Shown piece after piece: positions 1,736 to 41,323 of a stretch of 64,000 nucleotides of DNA. Below the pieces are notes generated by a model. That model was given only the letters and a program-made list of their open reading frames with translations. It was not told the DNA's origin and did no database searches. The stretch is from Marisediminitalea oceani (GTDB taxonomy: Bacteria > Pseudomonadota > Gammaproteobacteria > Enterobacterales > Alteromonadaceae): positions 1 through 64,000 of the forward strand of contig NZ_RCUA01000044.1 in the NCBI RefSeq assembly GCF_003731635.1, written 5' to 3'. A program made the position numbers and the translations under genes. How positions within the stretch are numbered: the stretch's first letter is position 1; every line of letters starts with the position of its first letter.

Positions 1736-3919
1736 ATGCTTACAATAAAAAAGACGCTCACTGCCACCGCCATAGTGCTGGCACTGGCAGGCTGTACTGA
1801 CGCACCATCGGGCAACGAAAATACCGCCTCAGGTGCTGCCGAAACAACCAGCCAGACAGTTGAAAATACCTTGCTGCAACCTTTTAAAGGCCCCTATGGT
1901 GGCGTACCAGCCTTTGAAGATATGCAACTGGACGATCTGATGCCAGCCATGGAAGCGGCTATGACCGAACACCTGGCCGAAATTGATGCGATTGCAAACA
2001 ACCCCGAAGCGCCGGATTTCGCCAATACGATTGTGGCTTACGAGAAGGCCGGCGACACCATTGGCCGGGTCTATACCTATTATGGTATCTGGAGCTCTAA
2101 TGTATCCAGTCCGGCGTTCCGTGAACTGCAGCGGGAGTTATCACCCAAGCTGTCAGCCTACCGCTCCAAAATCAATCAGAACAGCAAGCTTTTCGAGCGC
2201 ATTAAAGCGGTTTATGAAAGTGACGAACTAAACACGCTTACTGACGAAGAGCAACGTATCACGTGGCTCATCTATAACAGTTTTGCCCGCAATGGTGCTA
2301 CCCTTGAGGGTGAAGCTAAGGCCCGTTACGCCGAAATCAACAAAGAGCTGGCAAGCCTGCATACCCGTTTTTCCAATAACGTACTGGCAGACGAAGAAAA
2401 TTACGTCACGTATATTACAGCCGAGCAACTCGACGGCTTACCGGAAAGTTTTGTTAAAGCAGCAGCCGCTGCTGCCGCAGACCGTGGTAAGGAAGGCATG
2501 TATGCCATTACCAATACGCGTTCATCAATGGATCCTTTCCTGACCTACTCAACGCAGCGGGATTTACGCGAAAAAGTATGGCGCACCTATTACGACCGTG
2601 GCGATAATGGCGACGAGTTTGATAACAACGACATCATCAAACAAATCCTTACCCTGCGCCATGAACGCGTTCAGCTGCTCGGTTACGATAACTACGCTCA
2701 GTGGCGCCTCGAAGATCGCATGGCGAAGAACCCTGAAAATGCCATGGCGCTGATGATGAAAGTCTGGCCAGCGGCACTGGCCCGGGTAGAGGAAGAAGTG
2801 GCCGACATGCAGGCCATTGCCGATGCCGAAGATGCGGACATCGAAATTAAACCCTGGGATTATCGTTTTTACGCCGAGAAAGTTCGTCTCGCGAAATACG
2901 ACCTAGATTCCAATGAGGTGAAACAATACCTGCAACTGGATAAACTGCGCGAAGCCATGTTTTATGTGGCCGGGCGCTTGTTCAACTTTGACTTTAAACC
3001 GGTTCCGGCGGGCACGGTACCGGTATTCCATCCTGATGTGAAAGTATGGGAAGTGGCCGATAAGGACTCTGGCGAACTGGTTGGCCTGTGGTATCTGGAT
3101 CCGTTTGCTCGTCAGGGTAAACGCTCCGGCGCCTGGGCAACTACCTACCGTAGACACACCACCTTTGATGGTGACAAAAACGTTCTGTCGTCTAACAACT
3201 CGAACTTTGTGAAAGGACCGGAAGGTGAGCCAACGCTGATTTCCTGGGATGACGCTGAAACGTACTTCCATGAGTTTGGCCATGCGCTGCACTTCCTGTC
3301 AGCAAACGTTAAATACCCCACTTCACACTCTGGCGTCAGAGACTACACTGAGTTCCAGTCGCAGTTACTGGAGCGATGGCTGACCACTGATGAAGTCATT
3401 GATGAGTACCTGGTACATTATGAAACCGGCGAACCCATTCCGGACAGCCTGATTGCTAAAATCAAGAAGGCATCGACCTTTAATGAAGGCTTCAAGACTA
3501 CCGAATATATGGCGTCTGCCATCATGGATCTGCTTTATCACACCACAGATCCTGCCGGTATCGAACCAGACAGTTTTGAGCGTGAACAACTCAAAGCACT
3601 TGGCATGCCTGAAGAAATTGTGATGCGTCATCGTACTCCTCACTTTGGCCATGTTTTCTCTGGTGAGGGTTATTCAGCGGGTTACTATGGCTATATGTGG
3701 GCAGAAGTATTAACCGCGGATGCAGCAGAAGCTTTTGAAGAAGCGCCGGGCGGCTTTTACGATGAAGAAGTGTCAGCCAAGCTGGTGAAGTACTTATTCT
3801 CGGTGCGCAATGCTATGGATCCGGCCGAGGCCTATCGCATGTTCCGTGGTCGCGATGCTAACGTTGAAGCGCTTATGCGTGACCGTGGCTTTCCGGTAAC
3901 ATCAGAGCAGGATAAGTAA
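1736..3919 (+). CDS. M3 family peptidyl-dipeptidase, predicted lipoprotein (Dcp-like)
   Basis: A zinc metallopeptidase of the M3 (thimet oligopeptidase/Dcp) family that trims short peptides. The HEFGH zinc site is at residues 512-516, followed by the conserved downstream Glu-containing helix (YTEFQSQLLE). The N terminus is a lipoprotein signal with lipobox LALAGC and a Ser/Thr/Asn-rich linker, so the enzyme is probably anchored in the cell envelope rather than cytoplasmic like E. coli Dcp. Its 727 residues fit the family. It is a single gene closed by a strong terminator at 3941. Whether it acts as a dipeptidyl carboxypeptidase or an oligopeptidase cannot be told from sequence. Confidence 0.93.
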   Translation: MLTIKKTLTATAIVLALAGCTDAPSGNENTASGAAETTSQTVENTLLQPFKGPYGGVPAFEDMQLDDLMPAMEAAMTEHLAEIDAIANNPEAPDFANTIVAYEKAGDTIGRVYTYYGIWSSNVSSPAFRELQRELSPKLSAYRSKINQNSKLFERIKAVYESDELNTLTDEEQRITWLIYNSFARNGATLEGEAKARYAEINKELASLHTRFSNNVLADEENYVTYITAEQLDGLPESFVKAAAAAAADRGKEGMYAITNTRSSMDPFLTYSTQRDLREKVWRTYYDRGDNGDEFDNNDIIKQILTLRHERVQLLGYDNYAQWRLEDRMAKNPENAMALMMKVWPAALARVEEEVADMQAIADAEDADIEIKPWDYRFYAEKVRLAKYDLDSNEVKQYLQLDKLREAMFYVAGRLFNFDFKPVPAGTVPVFHPDVKVWEVADKDSGELVGLWYLDPFARQGKRSGAWATTYRRHTTFDGDKNVLSSNNSNFVKGPEGEPTLISWDDAETYFHEFGHALHFLSANVKYPTSHSGVRDYTEFQSQLLERWLTTDEVIDEYLVHYETGEPIPDSLIAKIKKASTFNEGFKTTEYMASAIMDLLYHTTDPAGIEPDSFEREQLKALGMPEEIVMRHRTPHFGHVFSGEGYSAGYYGYMWAEVLTADAAEAFEEAPGGFYDEEVSAKLVKYLFSVRNAMDPAEAYRMFRGRDANVEALMRDRGFPVTSEQDK

Positions 3920-3940
3920 CCGAAACGGTTAATAAAATAA

Positions 3941-3967
3941 AGGCCAGCCGCAAGGCTGGCCTTTTTG
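3941..3967 (+). terminator. Rho-independent terminator after the M3 peptidase
   Basis: Perfect 9-bp stem AGGCCAGCC / GGCTGGCCT with a GCAA loop, followed by TTTTTG. It lies between the plus-strand peptidase and the convergent minus-strand lipoprotein gene. An A-rich stretch precedes it, so it may work in both directions. Confidence 0.9.
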
Positions 3968-3979
3968 TTTCTGCCCCGG

Positions 3980-4846
3980 TTACTCGGGCAACTTCACCTT
4001 AATAAGCTTTGCAGCACTCAGTGGTGAGCTTTCCTGAGTCAGCCAGATAGTATTATTTTCGCGAACACAGAGGCCTTCTACCTGCCCGTAGCCGTTAAGC
4101 TTATAGGTACTGATTAGGTCAAACTCAGCTGACAGGGTGGCAATAAACGGCTTGAACATGCCCAGAGCATTACTGGTATAGCCAACAATTACATAGCGGT
4201 TATTTTGTGCGTCAAAATCAGCGCCAGTTACCACTCCAGGGATCCCTGATACCTCTGCTACCGGCGATAAAAGCGGGGTTACCTTGCCCTTGTCGAGCAA
4301 ATACACTTTTACTACACGAGTTAGCCAGCTCTTGGAAAACAGTACCAGTTGGTCGCCCCGGGAGACCATCGCTTCTGCATCGTAATCGTGCGCGTAGTAC
4401 TCGTTTTTGCCAACATCGTAGTTTTCATAGTTGACCGGTAAAGGCGTGATATCGCCCGTATCGGCCCTGCTGACCTTTAACACTGCCAGATCACTGCGTT
4501 TACCGGCATTGTTACCAAAGTCACCAATGTAGTAAAACTCGCTGTCTGCCGTTACCGACTCCCAGTCTGTATTCTTGCGCGGCAATTTCTCACTTTTTAT
4601 AATCGTGCCGGCAGTATCCAGAGTAAATAAGTCGGGGCTGTTGCCCGAATCATTGATAGTGTAAATATGGTTGGCATCACAATATAAGCCCGAGGTTTCC
4701 ACTAACTGTTCGTCTAAAACAATGTCTTCGAGCACTTCGATACCGCTGTCGTTGCCAGAATCCGTACTGCTGCAAGCGGCAGGGAGCAATAACAGGCTCA
4801 TTGCAAGTGCCTTACCAGCACCTGCCATAAAAGAAAGATTATTCAT
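3980..4846 (-). CDS. Putative lipoprotein with beta-propeller-like repeats, function unknown
   Basis: A 288-residue protein with an N-terminal signal and lipobox (LLPAACSS), so predicted to be lipidated. The body has repeated short strands of the kind seen in NHL or SdiA-regulated propellers, for example ETSGLYCDANHIYTINDSG and DWESVTADSEFYYIGDFGNN, and ends with EGLCVRENNTIWLTQE. The recurring pattern of a residue pair then DxDG or EG resembles proteins annotated as SdiA-regulated or esterase-like phytase domains, but I cannot assign an enzyme activity. It converges on the M3 peptidase gene across a shared terminator and is monocistronic. A role in envelope or extracellular binding is only an inference. 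Confidence 0.7.
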   Translation of the reverse strand: MNNLSFMAGAGKALAMSLLLLPAACSSTDSGNDSGIEVLEDIVLDEQLVETSGLYCDANHIYTINDSGNSPDLFTLDTAGTIIKSEKLPRKNTDWESVTADSEFYYIGDFGNNAGKRSDLAVLKVSRADTGDITPLPVNYENYDVGKNEYYAHDYDAEAMVSRGDQLVLFSKSWLTRVVKVYLLDKGKVTPLLSPVAEVSGIPGVVTGADFDAQNNRYVIVGYTSNALGMFKPFIATLSAEFDLISTYKLNGYGQVEGLCVRENNTIWLTQESSPLSAAKLIKVKLPE

Positions 4847-35867: not shown

Positions 35868-38800
35868 TTACTTGTCTGGAAATTGATAGTCGCTTGGCAG
35901 TACTTTATATACCTGCTTAAAACACCGGCTGTAGTAAGCGCCCGAGCCAAATCCTACCTCAAACGCTATCTGGGTTATTTGTAAACCTTGTTCCAGCATC
36001 GGCATGCTTTTCTCCAACCGGTACTTCTTTAAAAACATCGTAAAGTTATCCGGCAGTAGTTTGGACAGAGTACGATTGAGCTGCCTGTCGCTCATTGCTA
36101 GTAACGCCGAAGCGCGACTACGGTTAAACCGTTCATCCTGATAATTACTCTCTATTACATCTAAGAACTTAACAATAAATTTGCGGTCTTTTTCATTGTC
36201 ACACCGAGGTAAAATAGCCTTAACGTAAGCAGGTGTATCTTCCACGTTGTCGTTAGCGCTTCTGCTAACGTTATGACGATGTGCGAGCCGTGAGTAGGTC
36301 AGGTTACTTTCAATTCTTGATACCAGTTCTTCACGTTCTACCGGCTTAACCAGGTAGTCATTAACTGACGCCTTAAAGCTATTAAGTTTGGAGGTGTAGT
36401 CACTGGCGGCGGTGAGTATCATCACCGGCACATCAGCAAATACATCCTGCTCCCTGAGCTTTTCAGTAAATACTACACCGGAAATATCAGTGATGTTTAA
36501 CTCGGTGACTATTACATCAGGCTGCAAAACAGGGATGATTTCCAGTGCCTGCATACCGCTTTGGGTTGAGTAACAGTTAAAGCTTTCGCCCAGCAAATTA
36601 ATGATATATTCGCACGCCTCATGACTACGCTCGATCACGAGAACCACCGGTAAGTTACTTTCCCGATACTGAGCAGACTGTTCTGCTACCTGCCGTTGTG
36701 TTCCATCATCAACCGTAAGGGCTTCCCTGTTTTCCACTGTCAGTGCAGGGTTAAACGGTAAATGCACCGAAACCTCTGTACCCGTACCAGGTTCACTTTT
36801 TAATTCTAACCAGCCGTCATTGGCAAGCGCCAGTGCATTCGCCAGATTCAGGCCGATGCCGGTATTAGTGTTGCCATTATAATTGGAGCCCTTGGCAAAC
36901 CGGGAGGTAACAAATTCCAGGTGCGCTTTATCCATTCCCGGGCCGTTGTCTTTAATGTATACCACTAACTTATCGGCCTGGTGACTTGCCTTAATGCGCA
37001 CTTGTCCACCAGGCTGAGTATAAGAAACTGCATTGATCAGTAAATGGTTGAGTAGTGATTCCAATGAGTCCTGAATTAACAACACTGGCGCTCTGATATC
37101 ACAATCACAGCTGAGTATAAGTTGTTTTTTTAAGGCTTCCGGACGCCAGGTTTCAACCAGGAAATCTAATGTATTGCCAATATTGTATCGCTGCAGCACC
37201 TGGCCGCTAATATGTTCAATTCGTTCCACCGCCGCGAGTTGGTCGGTGAGCCCTCTGAGGCGGCCTGCGTTATCGTAAACCAGATCGAGCTTACCCCGGA
37301 TATCCGCTGTTAATGGCCTTGCCCGTAGCTCAGTGAGCGGATTTAAGATTTGCATTAGTGGTGTTTTTATCTCATTGGCCAGATTACTGAAGATTTTTTC
37401 TTTCTTGTTCAAGAGCTCGGTAATCGAGCGGTTACTTTCCAGCAGCGCCGACTGCTTCTGTTCAATAACCGCCGCCAACACCCTGCTTTTTTCAGCCATA
37501 TGACGTTTTATCAACACTACTACAAGCCAGATAGTCAGTGCTAAAGCCGCCAGATAAAGTATGTATGCCTGCCAGGTTAACCACAGTGGCCGGGCAATAT
37601 TGAACGGATAACGACTAATGGGCTGTACTGCCTGACTTTTACTATCCACAACCCGAACCTGAAAATCAAAATCGCCAAATCTCAGACCTGAGTAGGCCAC
37701 TGTACCCATATTCGCCGGCAACTCCTGCCAGTCTTCATGAAATCCCTTAAGACGATATTCAAGCTTGTGCAAATGCGGATAAACATAGTCTGCCGAAGCA
37801 AATTCAAAAATCATTTCATCGGGGGCAGAGGCCAGAGTTTCAGAAAGTAGATTATTCGGATAAGTCGTTATCTTTTTATTATCGTTAATCAGTTGAAGGC
37901 TGAAAACACTGGCTATAGACTTGTACGCTCTTCGATTCTGGACATATGCTGCCAACTTACCAGTGTCGATAAGATAACTCATCTGGTCGCCAACGAGCAC
38001 GAATTGAGAATCAGTAATGGGCATTAACCCCTGATGATTAAAATCTGTATCTATAACACCATCACTACTATCAAACTGGTAAGCCGACCCTCCATTCGTA
38101 TAAAACAGTCCCTTATTGGTCGCAAGCCAGTGATGACCTTCCCCATCAACAAAACCATCCCGAATAAAACGCGGCAGATTTAGCTCCGTAAATGCACCGT
38201 TGAACTGTCTTGAAGACAAATCGTATTGCTTCAGGCCACCTCCCGATGTACATAAATAAATGATGTCATCTGTTGGATGTGAATACATGCAATACACAAA
38301 AAATCTCTGCATATTAACTGCTTCGTGTTTTATCCAAACACCCAACTCTTCCATTGAGTAAAGCCTGTTTTTCTTATCCAATACTACGAGTGCATCATTT
38401 CTCTGCATACTTATAAATCGAATGCCCTTGGGTGCATTCATGTAATGTCTTAACTCATTCATGCTTAGTTGAGCAAAACCTGCATAAGATTCAACTTCGT
38501 AGTAAATATAAAAATTACCGCCATTCTGAAAAGCAATAGGCTTAAGGTTTCCACAGATATTTTCGGGATCCTTAACAGGTGCAACGACTTCCGAATCAAC
38601 ATCATCACTTGCCATCAGTACACAGTCATCAGTAGAGAAAAGTGAGCCATCGGGTATAGAAATAGGTGCTGATTTAAAGTCAGAGAGTGGTGAATCAACT
38701 AGTTTTCCACTGAGTAAGTCAAGCTTAAACTGATGGTCAGAAGCGCCGACTAATGCAGATGAGTCAGTCACGGACTTCAACCATTCAATATCTTTTCGAT

Positions 38801-39836
38801 AGGGAAAGTCTGTTTCGTGAAGATACTTTATCCCGGTATCATTGGCGTTGATTGTTAACAGGCCGAGTTGACTCGAACCAACAATGAGAGTCCCGTTCTC
38901 TAATTCCGCAATAGCGCCAATTGTTTTGATTTGTTCTAACGAATATTTGGGCTGTCCTTGTTTTAGCGCTGAAATGATATTTTTTTCATCGTTTAAATAG
39001 TACAGACCGGTCGCCGCAATCCATATTTGCCCGTTAGAGCTCACAAATATCTGGTCGACATCGTTGAGGCTATAAAGCGAGTCTGCAAAAGGATAATAAA
39101 TTGCCTTACTGGCAAGATCCCACTTGTAAACACCTCCTGGGCCTCCAACCAACAGATGGCCATTGTGCACTGAAACCGATGTAACTGAGTTAAGCATGGG
39201 AAAGTACTTTTCGATAGAATAAAAAGAAGTCTCCTCTAACAGTGGTTCGTGAACAACAAGCCCGCTCGCCTCAGGAAATACAAACCCAATATCAGGTAAA
39301 TATTCAGCCCCGTACATTCGCCTTAATCTGCCTGACTCCTGATTTTTATCTATTATCGTATTCGTACCCGTTTCAGTGTTATGGATGAGAATTTGATTAA
39401 TCAGGCTAATTCCCACGAATGGCTCAGCAACAGCTACTGCCCAGGACGACCTTGTAAGTTCGGGTGGTAAAGGGGAGGTCCTTAAGGAGCGATCTTCAGG
39501 TCTAAAGATGAACAGACCTGAGCCAAACTGCGAGATCCAGATATTTCCATCATTATCTAAGGTAAGATCAGATATATAACCATCGGACAGAGCCGAGTTT
39601 TCAGGGGAGTAGAAAGTAGAGGTTTCTCCAACCAGATCGAGGAATCCGTTCTCAGCGCCGAGATAGAGATGATTATCGTGCGTAACAATAGCGCGAACTA
39701 CGCCACTAGAGTCACCATTGAATTTCGTTTTTCCGACCCAGGCTGGCTCAACAGAGTAAGCATTGAAACTCCAGAGGATCAAAAAAAAGACAACGCCACA
39801 ACAAGTCCTTATTTTAAGATTGTTTGTCCTAAACAT
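35868..39836 (-). CDS. Hybrid two-component regulator (HTCS type) lacking canonical phosphoacceptor residues
   Basis: A 1322-residue single-chain sensor-regulator. The order is signal anchor (about 8-28), a beta-propeller sensor of two-component-regulator repeats (about 50-640), a Y_Y_Y-like beta domain (about 650-735), a membrane helix (about 745-770), dimerisation helices, an HATPase domain with N box, DNGPGM and GIGLNLA motifs, a receiver domain, and an AraC-type DNA-binding domain at the C terminus (SRASALLAMSDRQLNRTLSK). The H-box reads FSNLANEIKTPL, with Asn821 in place of the phosphorylated His (a CAT to AAT change). The receiver has Glu1112 (VTELNI) instead of Asp, and the acidic pair is VIER. 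Phosphotransfer is therefore doubtful, although ATP binding looks intact. It is divergent from the small GG-peptide gene 70 bases away. Known relatives sense glycans in the periplasm; the ligand here is unknown. Confidence 0.92.
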   Translation of the reverse strand: MFRTNNLKIRTCCGVVFFLILWSFNAYSVEPAWVGKTKFNGDSSGVVRAIVTHDNHLYLGAENGFLDLVGETSTFYSPENSALSDGYISDLTLDNDGNIWISQFGSGLFIFRPEDRSLRTSPLPPELTRSSWAVAVAEPFVGISLINQILIHNTETGTNTIIDKNQESGRLRRMYGAEYLPDIGFVFPEASGLVVHEPLLEETSFYSIEKYFPMLNSVTSVSVHNGHLLVGGPGGVYKWDLASKAIYYPFADSLYSLNDVDQIFVSSNGQIWIAATGLYYLNDEKNIISALKQGQPKYSLEQIKTIGAIAELENGTLIVGSSQLGLLTINANDTGIKYLHETDFPYRKDIEWLKSVTDSSALVGASDHQFKLDLLSGKLVDSPLSDFKSAPISIPDGSLFSTDDCVLMASDDVDSEVVAPVKDPENICGNLKPIAFQNGGNFYIYYEVESYAGFAQLSMNELRHYMNAPKGIRFISMQRNDALVVLDKKNRLYSMEELGVWIKHEAVNMQRFFVYCMYSHPTDDIIYLCTSGGGLKQYDLSSRQFNGAFTELNLPRFIRDGFVDGEGHHWLATNKGLFYTNGGSAYQFDSSDGVIDTDFNHQGLMPITDSQFVLVGDQMSYLIDTGKLAAYVQNRRAYKSIASVFSLQLINDNKKITTYPNNLLSETLASAPDEMIFEFASADYVYPHLHKLEYRLKGFHEDWQELPANMGTVAYSGLRFGDFDFQVRVVDSKSQAVQPISRYPFNIARPLWLTWQAYILYLAALALTIWLVVVLIKRHMAEKSRVLAAVIEQKQSALLESNRSITELLNKKEKIFSNLANEIKTPLMQILNPLTELRARPLTADIRGKLDLVYDNAGRLRGLTDQLAAVERIEHISGQVLQRYNIGNTLDFLVETWRPEALKKQLILSCDCDIRAPVLLIQDSLESLLNHLLINAVSYTQPGGQVRIKASHQADKLVVYIKDNGPGMDKAHLEFVTSRFAKGSNYNGNTNTGIGLNLANALALANDGWLELKSEPGTGTEVSVHLPFNPALTVENREALTVDDGTQRQVAEQSAQYRESNLPVVLVIERSHEACEYIINLLGESFNCYSTQSGMQALEIIPVLQPDVIVTELNITDISGVVFTEKLREQDVFADVPVMILTAASDYTSKLNSFKASVNDYLVKPVEREELVSRIESNLTYSRLAHRHNVSRSANDNVEDTPAYVKAILPRCDNEKDRKFIVKFLDVIESNYQDERFNRSRASALLAMSDRQLNRTLSKLLPDNFTMFLKKYRLEKSMPMLEQGLQITQIAFEVGFGSGAYYSRCFKQVYKVLPSDYQFPDK

Positions 39837-39906
39837 TCGCCCATCTCCGTATCTCTTTCCCTAGATTTACTTCATGTAACTCCCTACAACCAACGAGGAC
39901 TTCATT

Positions 39907-40083
39907 GTGAATATAGTACAAAAATTAACCATTTTCGAGCTTTCAGAACAGGACTGTCTCTTAGTACAGGGCGGTAGCGCAGCTTTACCTGCCGACTGGA
40001 GTAGCCTAGAAAAATTACCCTGTGGCCTGAGTGATAAAGTAGAAAAACCAGACCTGGTTATTTCGGTTAACACACAACCTTAG
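39907..40083 (+). CDS. 58-residue peptide with a double-glycine leader (RiPP/bacteriocin-like)
   Basis: The GTG start follows GAGGAC, an excellent ribosome-binding site, by 7 bases. The first 23 residues contain ELSEQDCLLVQGG, a near-perfect double-glycine leader: Leu at -12, Ser at -11, Val at -4, Gly-Gly at the cut site, with Cys where Leu usually sits at -7. The predicted core of 35 residues starts SAALPADWSSLEKLPCG and has a single Cys. Such leaders are cut and exported by C39-peptidase ABC transporters, none of which is in this window. The gene starts about 70 bases from the divergent regulator gene and its end overlaps the convergent umuC by 17 bases. Product and role are unproven. Confidence 0.6.
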   Translation: MNIVQKLTIFELSEQDCLLVQGGSAALPADWSSLEKLPCGLSDKVEKPDLVISVNTQP

Positions 40084-41323
40084 GCAAATGCCGCCAGTTA
40101 GTCGTGTATTGGGGTGACAGGTGTTCTCTTTTCATCCCCCATTCCGGGTGTATTCCTTTTGCGGCTGCGCCTATAGTCTGACTGCCGTAGCGGCTGTTTA
40201 TTGCATCCATGCATTGCATGAGTTTGGGGTTGTGAGCGAGTTCGGCGAACATATCGCTCTGCTCATGGGCAGTTTCGATAATCTCTATCGCGCCAACGCC
40301 ACACTTGTGTAATTTAATATTGGCTTTGTAAAGCGCGTGACTGGCATTAGACGCAGCCTGAACCAGCGCTCTGGTATCGTTAGTTGGCTGCGCAAAGCGA
40401 TGCTGAATCGCCTTGTGGTATTGTTCTGTATCCGCAAAGGGATTGGCGTGAGTAAATAAAGTGAGTAGCCAGGCTTTACTCTGCTGCCGGCGTAATTTCT
40501 CAGCTACTTTTTCAGCATGCCAGCAGAGGCTCTCACGCAGAAACTGTTCGCTGGTAACCGGTTGCCCGAACGCCCGCGTTGAGTATATTTGCTGCTTCTT
40601 CGCTCTTTCCTCATCCCACTTTATACACACGGTACCGTTGAGCTCTCTTACCGTTCTCTCCAGTTCTACTGAAAACTGTTTACGCAGCGCTTTAGGATCA
40701 AATTGTGCCAGCTGCCAGGCGTTTATTATACCTTGCTCACGCAACCGGGCAGCTATGCGTTTACCCACTCCCCAAACATCTTGGACATCCATTTGAAGTA
40801 GCACATGCCTACAAGCTTCCGGCGTATCGAGCACGGCAATGCCAGACTTATCGCCCAGCTTTTTACCTGCAAAGCTGGCAACCTTCGCAAGTGTGGGCGT
40901 TGCGCCTAAGCCAACACCTACCGGCAATCTGAGTTGCTGCCACACATCACTCTGTATGCGTTCAGCATAAACGCGCCAGCTTTCAGCAGGCCGCCAGCTA
41001 TCAAAAAATAAGAAGCACTCGTCTATGGAATATACATGCTGGTCAGGAGCGTACTGACCTACTACCTGCATCATCTTATTCGACAAGTAATCGTAGAGTT
41101 CATAGTTAGAAGAACGGATCACGGCATTGTGCTGTGCCAGCAGTTTTTTAACCTTGTAGTAGGGGCCAAACTTTTTGACGCCCAATTGCTTGGCGTGCTC
41201 ACAAAGAGCGCAAATACAGCCATCATTGTTGGTAAGCACAACAACCGGTCGCTGGCGAATGGCCGGGTCGAAGACTTTTTCGGCCGAAGCATAAAAGCTA
41301 TTGGCATCGACTAACGCATACAT
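40067..41323 (-). CDS. umuC: DNA polymerase V catalytic subunit UmuC
   Basis: A 418-residue Y-family polymerase for translesion synthesis after DNA damage. It begins MYALVDANSFYASAEKVFDP with the first catalytic Asp, has the second acidic site in HVYSIDECFL (Asp-Glu), the helix-hairpin-helix region VQDVWGVGKRIAARL and the little-finger domain after about 240. The start at 41323 aligns with E. coli UmuC; an in-frame ATG at 41335 would add four residues. It overlaps the umuD end by 13 bases and so is coupled to it. Regulation is by the LexA box at 41754. Confidence 0.96.
   Translation of the reverse strand: MYALVDANSFYASAEKVFDPAIRQRPVVVLTNNDGCICALCEHAKQLGVKKFGPYYKVKKLLAQHNAVIRSSNYELYDYLSNKMMQVVGQYAPDQHVYSIDECFLFFDSWRPAESWRVYAERIQSDVWQQLRLPVGVGLGATPTLAKVASFAGKKLGDKSGIAVLDTPEACRHVLLQMDVQDVWGVGKRIAARLREQGIINAWQLAQFDPKALRKQFSVELERTVRELNGTVCIKWDEERAKKQQIYSTRAFGQPVTSEQFLRESLCWHAEKVAEKLRRQQSKAWLLTLFTHANPFADTEQYHKAIQHRFAQPTNDTRALVQAASNASHALYKANIKLHKCGVGAIEIIETAHEQSDMFAELAHNPKLMQCMDAINSRYGSQTIGAAAKGIHPEWGMKREHLSPQYTTNWRHLPKVVC

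What the first reader, a model, noticed from the sequence alone, without database searches (positions are those of the whole stretch)
39907..40083. Hidden 58-residue double-glycine-leader peptide gene divergent from the pseudo-HTCS
ELSEQDCLLVQGG is a near-canonical leader for C39-type export, with GTG start and strong GAGGAC ribosome-binding site. It is short, starts with GTG and overlaps umuC, so ordinary gene calling may miss it. Peptide and regulator starts are 70 bases apart. The peptide could be a secreted signal sensed by the regulator's periplasmic propeller, or a bacteriocin-like product under its control. Neither is proven.
Basis: partly seen in the sequence, partly recalled or inferred. 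Interest (0 to 1): 0.72.

Follow-up and report, generated by a model that had tools for sequence, protein, structure and literature searches.

The report
Swappable peptide signal and receptor pair
A tiny gene encodes a peptide built for export, sits beside a large membrane sensor in most of the related marine bacteria examined, and has been swapped between species together with that sensor's outer part, as expected of a bacterial peptide language with several dialects.

Summary
A 58-codon GTG gene (39907-40083, +) with a double-glycine leader lies 70 bp from, and divergent to, an HTCS-type regulator (35868-39836, -). It is a real gene: 52 of 59 genomes of the GTDB genus (Alteromonas by some record titles) carry such a peptide next to an HTCS relative. 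Leader and proline-containing tail are kept, the core varies, and dN/dS is below 1 in 35 of 36 comparisons. Similar pairs occur in three other genera. The genome has one C39 exporter.

The strongest evidence came from relatives. Between window and G044, flanks are 88-100% identical, but a ~2.25 kb block (peptide, promoter, both propellers) drops to 35-68%; HTCS regions are 95-100% identical after residue 690, 27-56% before. In two other clades the switch is at residue 319-335, the end of propeller 1. Two peptide/propeller-1 allele lineages cut across three kinase clades.

Best reading: an exported pheromone sensed by propeller 1 of its divergent HTCS, with exchangeable pherotypes, like ComQXPA or ComCD but with an unrelated receptor. 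Secretion, binding and regulation are inferred, not shown.

The parts
39907..40083 (+). peptide precursor gene, 58 codons, GTG start
   Evidence: conserved next to HTCS relatives; purifying selection
39907..39975 (+). 23-residue double-glycine leader, L(-12) D(-8) V(-4) GG
   Evidence: leader length 23 in 43 of 53 family peptides; motif test
39976..40080 (+). predicted mature peptide, 35 residues, variable core with conserved EKP motif
   Evidence: cleavage site inferred from the leader
39895..39900 (+). GAGGAC ribosome-binding site
   Evidence: read
39837..39906 (.). 70-bp divergent promoter region between peptide and HTCS
   Evidence: spacing median 72 bp, 50 of 50 measured pairs divergent; no operator repeat found
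35868..39836 (-). HTCS-type regulator, 1322 aa: two propellers, Y_Y_Y, TM, degenerate HisKA, HATPase, degenerate receiver, AraC-type HTH
   Evidence: Pfam; residues; fold; TM by eye
38829..39713 (-). propeller 1 (aa 42-336), proposed peptide-specificity domain
   Evidence: domain limits; exchange breakpoints at aa 319 and 335 in two clades; propeller-N tree
37797..38828 (-). propeller 2 (about aa 337-680); exchanged too between window and G044, kept in L031/L033
37374..37376 (-). Asn821 in place of the phospho-acceptor His
36501..36503 (-). Glu1112 in place of the receiver phospho-acceptor Asp
35883..36107 (-). AraC-type HTH_18 output domain
37820..40085 (.). exchanged cassette: sensor codons, promoter and whole peptide gene
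   Evidence: DNA identity drops from 96-98% to 35-68% between about 37,800-37,835 and about 40,085 against L030

Best explanation
The gene encodes a secreted peptide pheromone. The 23-residue leader is cut after Gly-Gly and the ~35-residue peptide exported by the genome's C39-peptidase ABC transporter with its HlyD partner. The peptide then reaches the periplasm and binds propeller 1 of the divergently encoded HTCS. Binding switches the HTCS's own AraC-type DNA-binding domain, which probably acts on the shared 70-bp promoter and on unknown targets. In the window's clade the phospho-relay residues are lost, so signalling there would be conformational. Peptide and propeller form an exchangeable cassette that gives related species different, partly trans-species 'pherotypes'. 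SHOWN here: the conserved gene, leader and linkage; the exporter gene; cassette exchange at domain boundaries; allele lineages crossing kinase clades. INFERRED: cleavage, export, binding, promoter control, quorum sensing.
For: (1) 52 of 59 genus genomes have the pair: 38 by peptide profile, 14 more by looking upstream of the nearest HTCS. 50 of 50 measurable pairs (of 53) are divergent, median gap 72 bp. Control ORFs: 0 of 172.
(2) Window vs L030: flanks 88-100% for over 3 kb each side, block 35-68%. HTCS regions 95-100% after residue 690, 27-56% before. Isolate A. alba (L029/L082) shows the same drop, with flanks about 78-100% where held.
(3) Breakpoints at aa 668, 335 and 319; propeller 1 is aa 42-336. 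L037/L042 show the reverse: sensor 99%, rest 89%.
(4) Alpha alleles are one side of a branch in the propeller-N tree (95/94); beta as its own clade is weaker (69/81). The cytoplasmic tree needs 5 changes and rejects alpha (AU 8e-75) and beta (2e-5); propeller-N rejects the three kinase clades (AU 0.005, 4e-14, 4e-8).
(5) Peptide core tracks propeller-N given the cytoplasmic part: partial rho 0.54, 0 of 999 (12 loci); 0.36, 0 of 999 (23 loci).
(6) A second HTCS without a peptide, found in 4 of 8 genomes, shows no such exchange.
(7) In G475 an HTCS relative is divergent from a LuxR-HTH/HlyD/C39 gene row; in G469 from a LanM, GG-precursor, C39 cluster.
Against: No experiment. One-contig genome G019 keeps peptide and HTCS but has no C39 ABC exporter that I could find. 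G011 has HTCS and exporter but no peptide; G006 has HTCS but neither. C39 is strong in 57 of 59 genomes including peptide-less ones, so its presence is uninformative. Over all 49 loci the core/propeller-N signal is weak (0.15) and vanishes once propeller-C is held fixed (-0.02, 671 of 999); the core also tracks the cytoplasmic part given propeller-N (0.36, 20 of 999 in the 12-locus clade). How a ~3.8-kDa peptide would return through the outer membrane is unknown. No operator was found. A peptide inside an exchanged block could be hitchhiking. In other genera 6 of 15 HTCS relatives had no convincing GG peptide beside them; one is at a contig start, one (L115) is doubtful. One control HTCS (L132) also diverges in its sensor, to 60-78%.
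Confidence: 0.62

Rival explanations
1. A microcin/bacteriocin whose production is autoregulated: the exported peptide inhibits relatives, and the HTCS senses the peptide and controls it (pheromone-like induction of a bacteriocin).
For: GG-leader plus C39 plus HlyD-type partner is the class II microcin export route (PMC9746304, passages); an HTCS relative in G469 sits beside a lanthipeptide cluster; the core varies.
Against: In the window no room for an immunity gene between umuC and the SDR gene; none recognised among ORFs of at least 150 aa in five pair loci, where a small one would be missed. Mature peptides are 24-42 residues, neutral or acidic in 37 of 53. The pair is in 52 of 59 genomes, unlike patchy bacteriocins (recalled).
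Confidence: 0.17
2. The HTCS senses an unrelated ligand (for example a polysaccharide, as Bacteroides HTCS do) and the peptide is a target gene, carried along when the fast-evolving sensor is exchanged.
For: Closest solved folds are Bacteroides HTCS sensors, BT4663 (titled heparin/heparan sulphate sensing) and relatives; the exchanged tract ends in conserved genes on both sides.
Against: Peptide tails follow propeller-1 lineages across three kinase clades; in L031/L033 and L026/L034 the sensor break lies at propeller 1 while the peptide core also differs; a second HTCS is not exchanged this way (though L132 falls to 60-78% in its first 400 aa).
Confidence: 0.15
3. The peptide acts inside the periplasm as a cofactor or inhibitor of its own HTCS, with no signalling between cells.
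For: Near genus-wide one-to-one pairing, co-variation; no outer-membrane channel was looked for; G019 keeps the pair without a C39 exporter found.
Against: Allele turnover of this kind is known from between-cell signals; the leader type matches full export systems.
Confidence: 0.06

Closest known systems
ComQXPA of Bacillus subtilis (peptide pheromone and histidine-kinase receptor; pherotypes)
   Same: Peptide gene plus the 5' sensor-coding part of the receptor are poorly conserved among isolates (PMC6334282, passages)
   Different: ComX is modified and exported with ComQ and has no GG leader (recalled); ComP is a separate kinase acting on ComA. Here: GG leader, no modifying enzyme next to the pair, one-piece HTCS with propellers, Gram-negative host
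ComCDE / BlpCRH of streptococci
   Same: GG-leader pheromone exported by a C39 transporter (recalled), receptor allele matches peptide allele, trans-species pattern reported for S. mitis and S. pseudopneumoniae (PMC5629823, passages)
   Different: Receptor ComD is a polytopic membrane kinase (recalled), not a periplasmic propeller; separate response regulator
Bacteroides HTCS (BT4663, BT3049, BT4673)
   Same: Sensor fold; domain order as (for Bacteroides recalled)
   Different: BT4663 is titled a heparin/heparan sulphate sensor; here there is a linked GG peptide, and in this clade phospho-acceptor residues are lost
Class II microcins
   Same: GG leader, C39 exporter, membrane-fusion partner (PMC9746304, passages)
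   Different: Linked to a regulator; no immunity gene recognised; the window peptide matches no Pfam or NCBIfam model

Membership tests
Double-glycine leader (C39-exported) peptides | Leader with hydrophobic -12 and -4, acidic -8, ending GG/GA/GS/AG (consensus recalled) | tested here: met
   Strict motif in the window peptide and at 49 of 57 regulator loci; 0 of 172 controls
Double-glycine leader (C39-exported) peptides | C39 ABC exporter in the genome | tested here: met
   One C39 ABC gene plus HlyD, G000:C4; not found in G019 although its peptide is kept
Double-glycine leader (C39-exported) peptides | Cleavage after GG and export | not testable with these tools
   needs mass spectrometry
HTCS (hybrid two-component systems) | Propeller sensor, Y_Y_Y, HisKA, HATPase, receiver, AraC HTH in one chain | tested here: met
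   HisKA 24.5 bits is just under its 26.9-bit cut-off; fold
HTCS (hybrid two-component systems) | Phospho-acceptor His and Asp | tested here: not met
   Asn821 and Glu1112 in the window; His kept in 30 of 49, Asp in 39 of 49 family members
Peptide-pherotype quorum sensing (works like) | Adjacent peptide and receptor genes | tested here: met
   50 of 50 measurable pairs divergent, median 72 bp; that the HTCS is the receptor is inferred
Peptide-pherotype quorum sensing (works like) | Peptide and sensor domain vary together, signalling domains conserved | tested here: met
   in the window's clade; weak over all 49 loci; species-level comparison only
Peptide-pherotype quorum sensing (works like) | Receptor responds to the cognate peptide | not testable with these tools
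   needs reporter or binding assay
Class II microcins | Linked immunity gene | tested here: inconclusive
   no room beside the pair in the window; other loci checked only for ORFs of 150 aa or more, five pair loci

The most novel reading that the evidence does not exclude
A genus-wide Gram-negative peptide language in which a secreted double-glycine peptide is read by the first propeller of a one-piece membrane transcription factor that, in the window's clade, works without phosphotransfer; dialects are kept as trans-species alleles and exchanged as a peptide-plus-propeller cassette.
Probability: 0.45. Interest if true: 0.92.

Novelty: new variant of a known kind. Interest (0 to 1): 0.83.

Why it matters
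Peptide pherotype systems are textbook biology in Gram-positive bacteria. In my searches, seen as listings with titles and abstract starts of the top rows only, no listed paper described a peptide paired with a propeller HTCS, or one in Alteromonas; the library is partial. If right, marine bacteria of this genus have a peptide language that family libraries do not name. It would also supply a ligand for a receptor class best known for glycan sensing (recalled), natural receptor chimeras that map specificity to one propeller, and a way to ask how a receptor signals after losing its phosphorylation sites.

Tried and rejected
Considered and rejected. (a) Chance ORF: rejected by conservation and controls. 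(b) SOS-linked toxin, because umuDC and yebG are neighbours: in 20 of the 21 loci no UmuC match was found in the stretch held, and the peptide has no membrane-like stretch by eye. (c) Plasmid-borne relative: no match in plasmids. (d) MAG assembly artefact behind the exchange: the isolate A. alba shows it too. (e) Weak hits dropped: G020:C13 (E 6.9e-5, stops inside; locus L062 holds no HTCS match) and G048:C1:993920 / L040 (no HTCS match). In one search several tail-only hits (for example L017-L020) were passed over when choosing loci. Of the weaker profile hits only G012 was followed and proved real. G268 (another family, E 5e-4) was not followed. (f) Operator repeats: none shared in the four intergenic regions tried. 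(g) Promoter scan: one promoter-like and one terminator-like site, about what shuffles give.

Limits. The alpha/beta groups were named from peptide tails after I had seen the identity table. The five genomes without an HTCS match had only 29 of about 100 candidates scored, 4 per genome. One search stopped with an error after 16 of 18 planned pairs. L024, L045, L047 and L055 have cut or broken HTCS frames and were left out of the 49-locus tables. In one search mainly residues 42-336 were tested. Family scans covered 39 of the 53 peptides; their best hit was one member against Dmrt1 at E 0.00098, taken as chance. After checking the draft I lowered the best explanation from 0.64 to 0.62 and raised the microcin rival from 0.15 to 0.17, because the immunity-gene check had covered fewer loci and only larger ORFs than first written.

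Full report
OBSERVATION. The ORF 39907-40083 (+) is present as described: GTG start, GAGGAC ending six bases before it, 58 codons, leader MNIVQKLTIFELSEQDCLLVQGG. It ends inside the 3' end of convergent umuC. On the other side, 70 bp away, starts a 1322-residue regulator on the minus strand. Pfam finds there Reg_prop, Y_Y_Y, HisKA (24.5 bits, cut-off 26.9), HATPase, receiver and HTH_18. The HisKA histidine is Asn and the receiver aspartate is Glu.

REAL GENE. A protein search of 98 genomes gave 38 with a hit at E <= 1, many of them noise. I fetched 18 same-genus places chosen from that list; 17 carried the gene divergent from an HTCS relative and one (L040) was a chance hit. A profile found it in 38 of 59 genus genomes at E below 1e-4 (a further place in G020 was dropped as chance). 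The 21 new loci again showed an HTCS beside it, its frame broken or cut in L045, L047 and L055. For the remaining 21 genomes I searched with the HTCS: 16 had one at E <= 1e-40 and 5 did not. Upstream of those 16, 14 had a divergent GG-leader ORF by eye; the exceptions were L087 (G006) and L094 (G011). In total 52 of 59. Two less similar HTCS (L103 of the window genome, L104) had none. A strict motif gives 49 of 57 regulators against 0 of 172 other ORFs of at least 250 aa in the same loci. Its misses are L026 and L057 (a longer start was taken), L096 and L099 (a leader position differs), and L087, L094, L103 and L104 (no peptide). Codon comparisons of 18 pairs, leader and core apart, give dN/dS 0 to 0.68 in 35 of 36; one leader comparison is 1.15 on five changes. 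The window peptide matches no Pfam or NCBIfam model; among 39 peptides scanned only scattered single-member hits appear.

BEYOND THE GENUS. The peptide profile finds nothing certain in other genera: 5 of 394 order genomes and 10 of 295 family genomes hit, of which one, unexamined, lies outside the genus. The HTCS profile does: 15 HTCS in 14 genomes of 8 other genera at E <= 1e-220, in a sample of 147 family genomes. GG-type ORFs lay divergent from 7 of 15 by strict motif and 9 of 15 by eye, in three genera (g43, g120, g125); a tenth, L115, is doubtful. In G475 an HTCS relative is divergent, across about 1 kb without a GG peptide, from a LuxR-type HTH, an HlyD-like gene and a C39 exporter. The window genome's own exporter row has the same gene types: HlyD, C39, then an 80-aa LuxR HTH (the G475 HTH and HlyD judged by eye). 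In G469 an HTCS relative is divergent from a LanM-type enzyme, a GG precursor and a C39 exporter. So GG-peptide export recurs beside this HTCS type.

ALLELE LINEAGES. Peptide tails fall into two types..[DK/NE][VI]EKP (alpha: window, L023, L025, L026, L031) and ..E[EHQ]AEKP (beta: L027-L030, L032-L034). In the tree of residues 30-380 alpha is one side of a branch (95/94); beta as a clade of its own, against the two outgroup rows, has 69/81. In the tree of residues 690-1322 five changes are needed (at least three forced by well-supported branches), and three kinase clades each contain both types, with supports 99/97, 100/100 and 99/100. The propeller-N data reject each of those clades (AU 0.005, 4e-14, 4e-8), and the cytoplasmic data reject alpha (8e-75) and beta (2e-5). 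The propeller-C tree keeps L031 with L033 (97/99) and needs three changes. I named the groups after seeing identities, so the AU values are not blind. Matrix tests agree in the two clades tested: core with propeller-N given the cytoplasmic part 0.54 (12 loci) and 0.36 (23 loci), each 0 of 999. In the 12-locus clade the core also follows the cytoplasmic part given propeller-N (0.36, 20 of 999). Over all 49 loci the signal is 0.15 (3 of 999) and absent with propeller-C held fixed.

CONTROL. The second HTCS of the window genome has orthologues in 4 of 8 genomes tried. They are 84-100% identical along the sensor in L129-L131; L132 falls to 60-78% over the first 400 residues. This is less than the 27-37% of the paired HTCS but shows that sensor divergence alone is not unique.

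MECHANISM. The most economical reading is a peptide pheromone with a propeller receptor. Steps shown: gene, leader, linkage, exporter gene, exchange. Steps inferred: processing, export, return to the periplasm, binding, promoter control. Loss of His in 19 of 49 and of both His and Asp in 10 of 49 family HTCS, and in none of four unpaired HTCS, suggests that phosphotransfer is dispensable in part of the family.

PROBLEMS. G019 has the pair without a C39 ABC exporter found. C39 presence does not discriminate: strong in 57 of 59 genomes. The operator and regulon are unknown. No within-species data were available.

LITERATURE. Searches were read as listings; two returned no paper. Passages were read in PMC6334282, PMC9746304 and PMC5629823. 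[quoted passage not shown] PMC5629823 reports concordance of CSP and comD alleles and a trans-species pattern between S. mitis and S. pseudopneumoniae. No listed paper, by title and abstract start, described a peptide paired with a propeller HTCS.

Noticed in passing
L121:4793-15980: Class II lanthipeptide-like cluster (LanM-type enzyme, GG precursor, C39, HlyD-like gene) divergent from an HTCS in another genus of the family.
   Followed up: partly
L125:2922-7885: MvdD-like ATP-grasp gene, a GG-leader ORF (3901-4134) and C39/HlyD-like genes together, suggesting a modified-peptide cluster.
   Followed up: partly
L022:6142-9837: Window genome's exporter row HlyD, C39 ABC, 80-aa LuxR-type HTH, beside hslUV-like genes; no GG peptide noticed in the part read.
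   Followed up: partly
L076, L077: One MAG (MED610) holds two contigs with versions of this locus whose peptides differ at 7 of 60 residues, probably two strains binned together.
   Followed up: no
L023 vs L029: Identity to the window follows nearly the same numbers over 33.3-36.3 kb in both, suggesting a shared recombined flank between two species.
   Followed up: no
L038, L041, L043, L044, L045, L058: Peptide tails ending HQQPLHTGIFGG-like seem to run into the 3' end of a convergent gene (HAD-phosphatase-like in L043, by eye).
   Followed up: no
window:41820-42107: YebG-family gene next to umuDC, so the cassette borders an SOS-type gene group.
   Followed up: no
L069: Weak profile hit (E 5e-4) in a genome of another family, not examined.
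   Followed up: no
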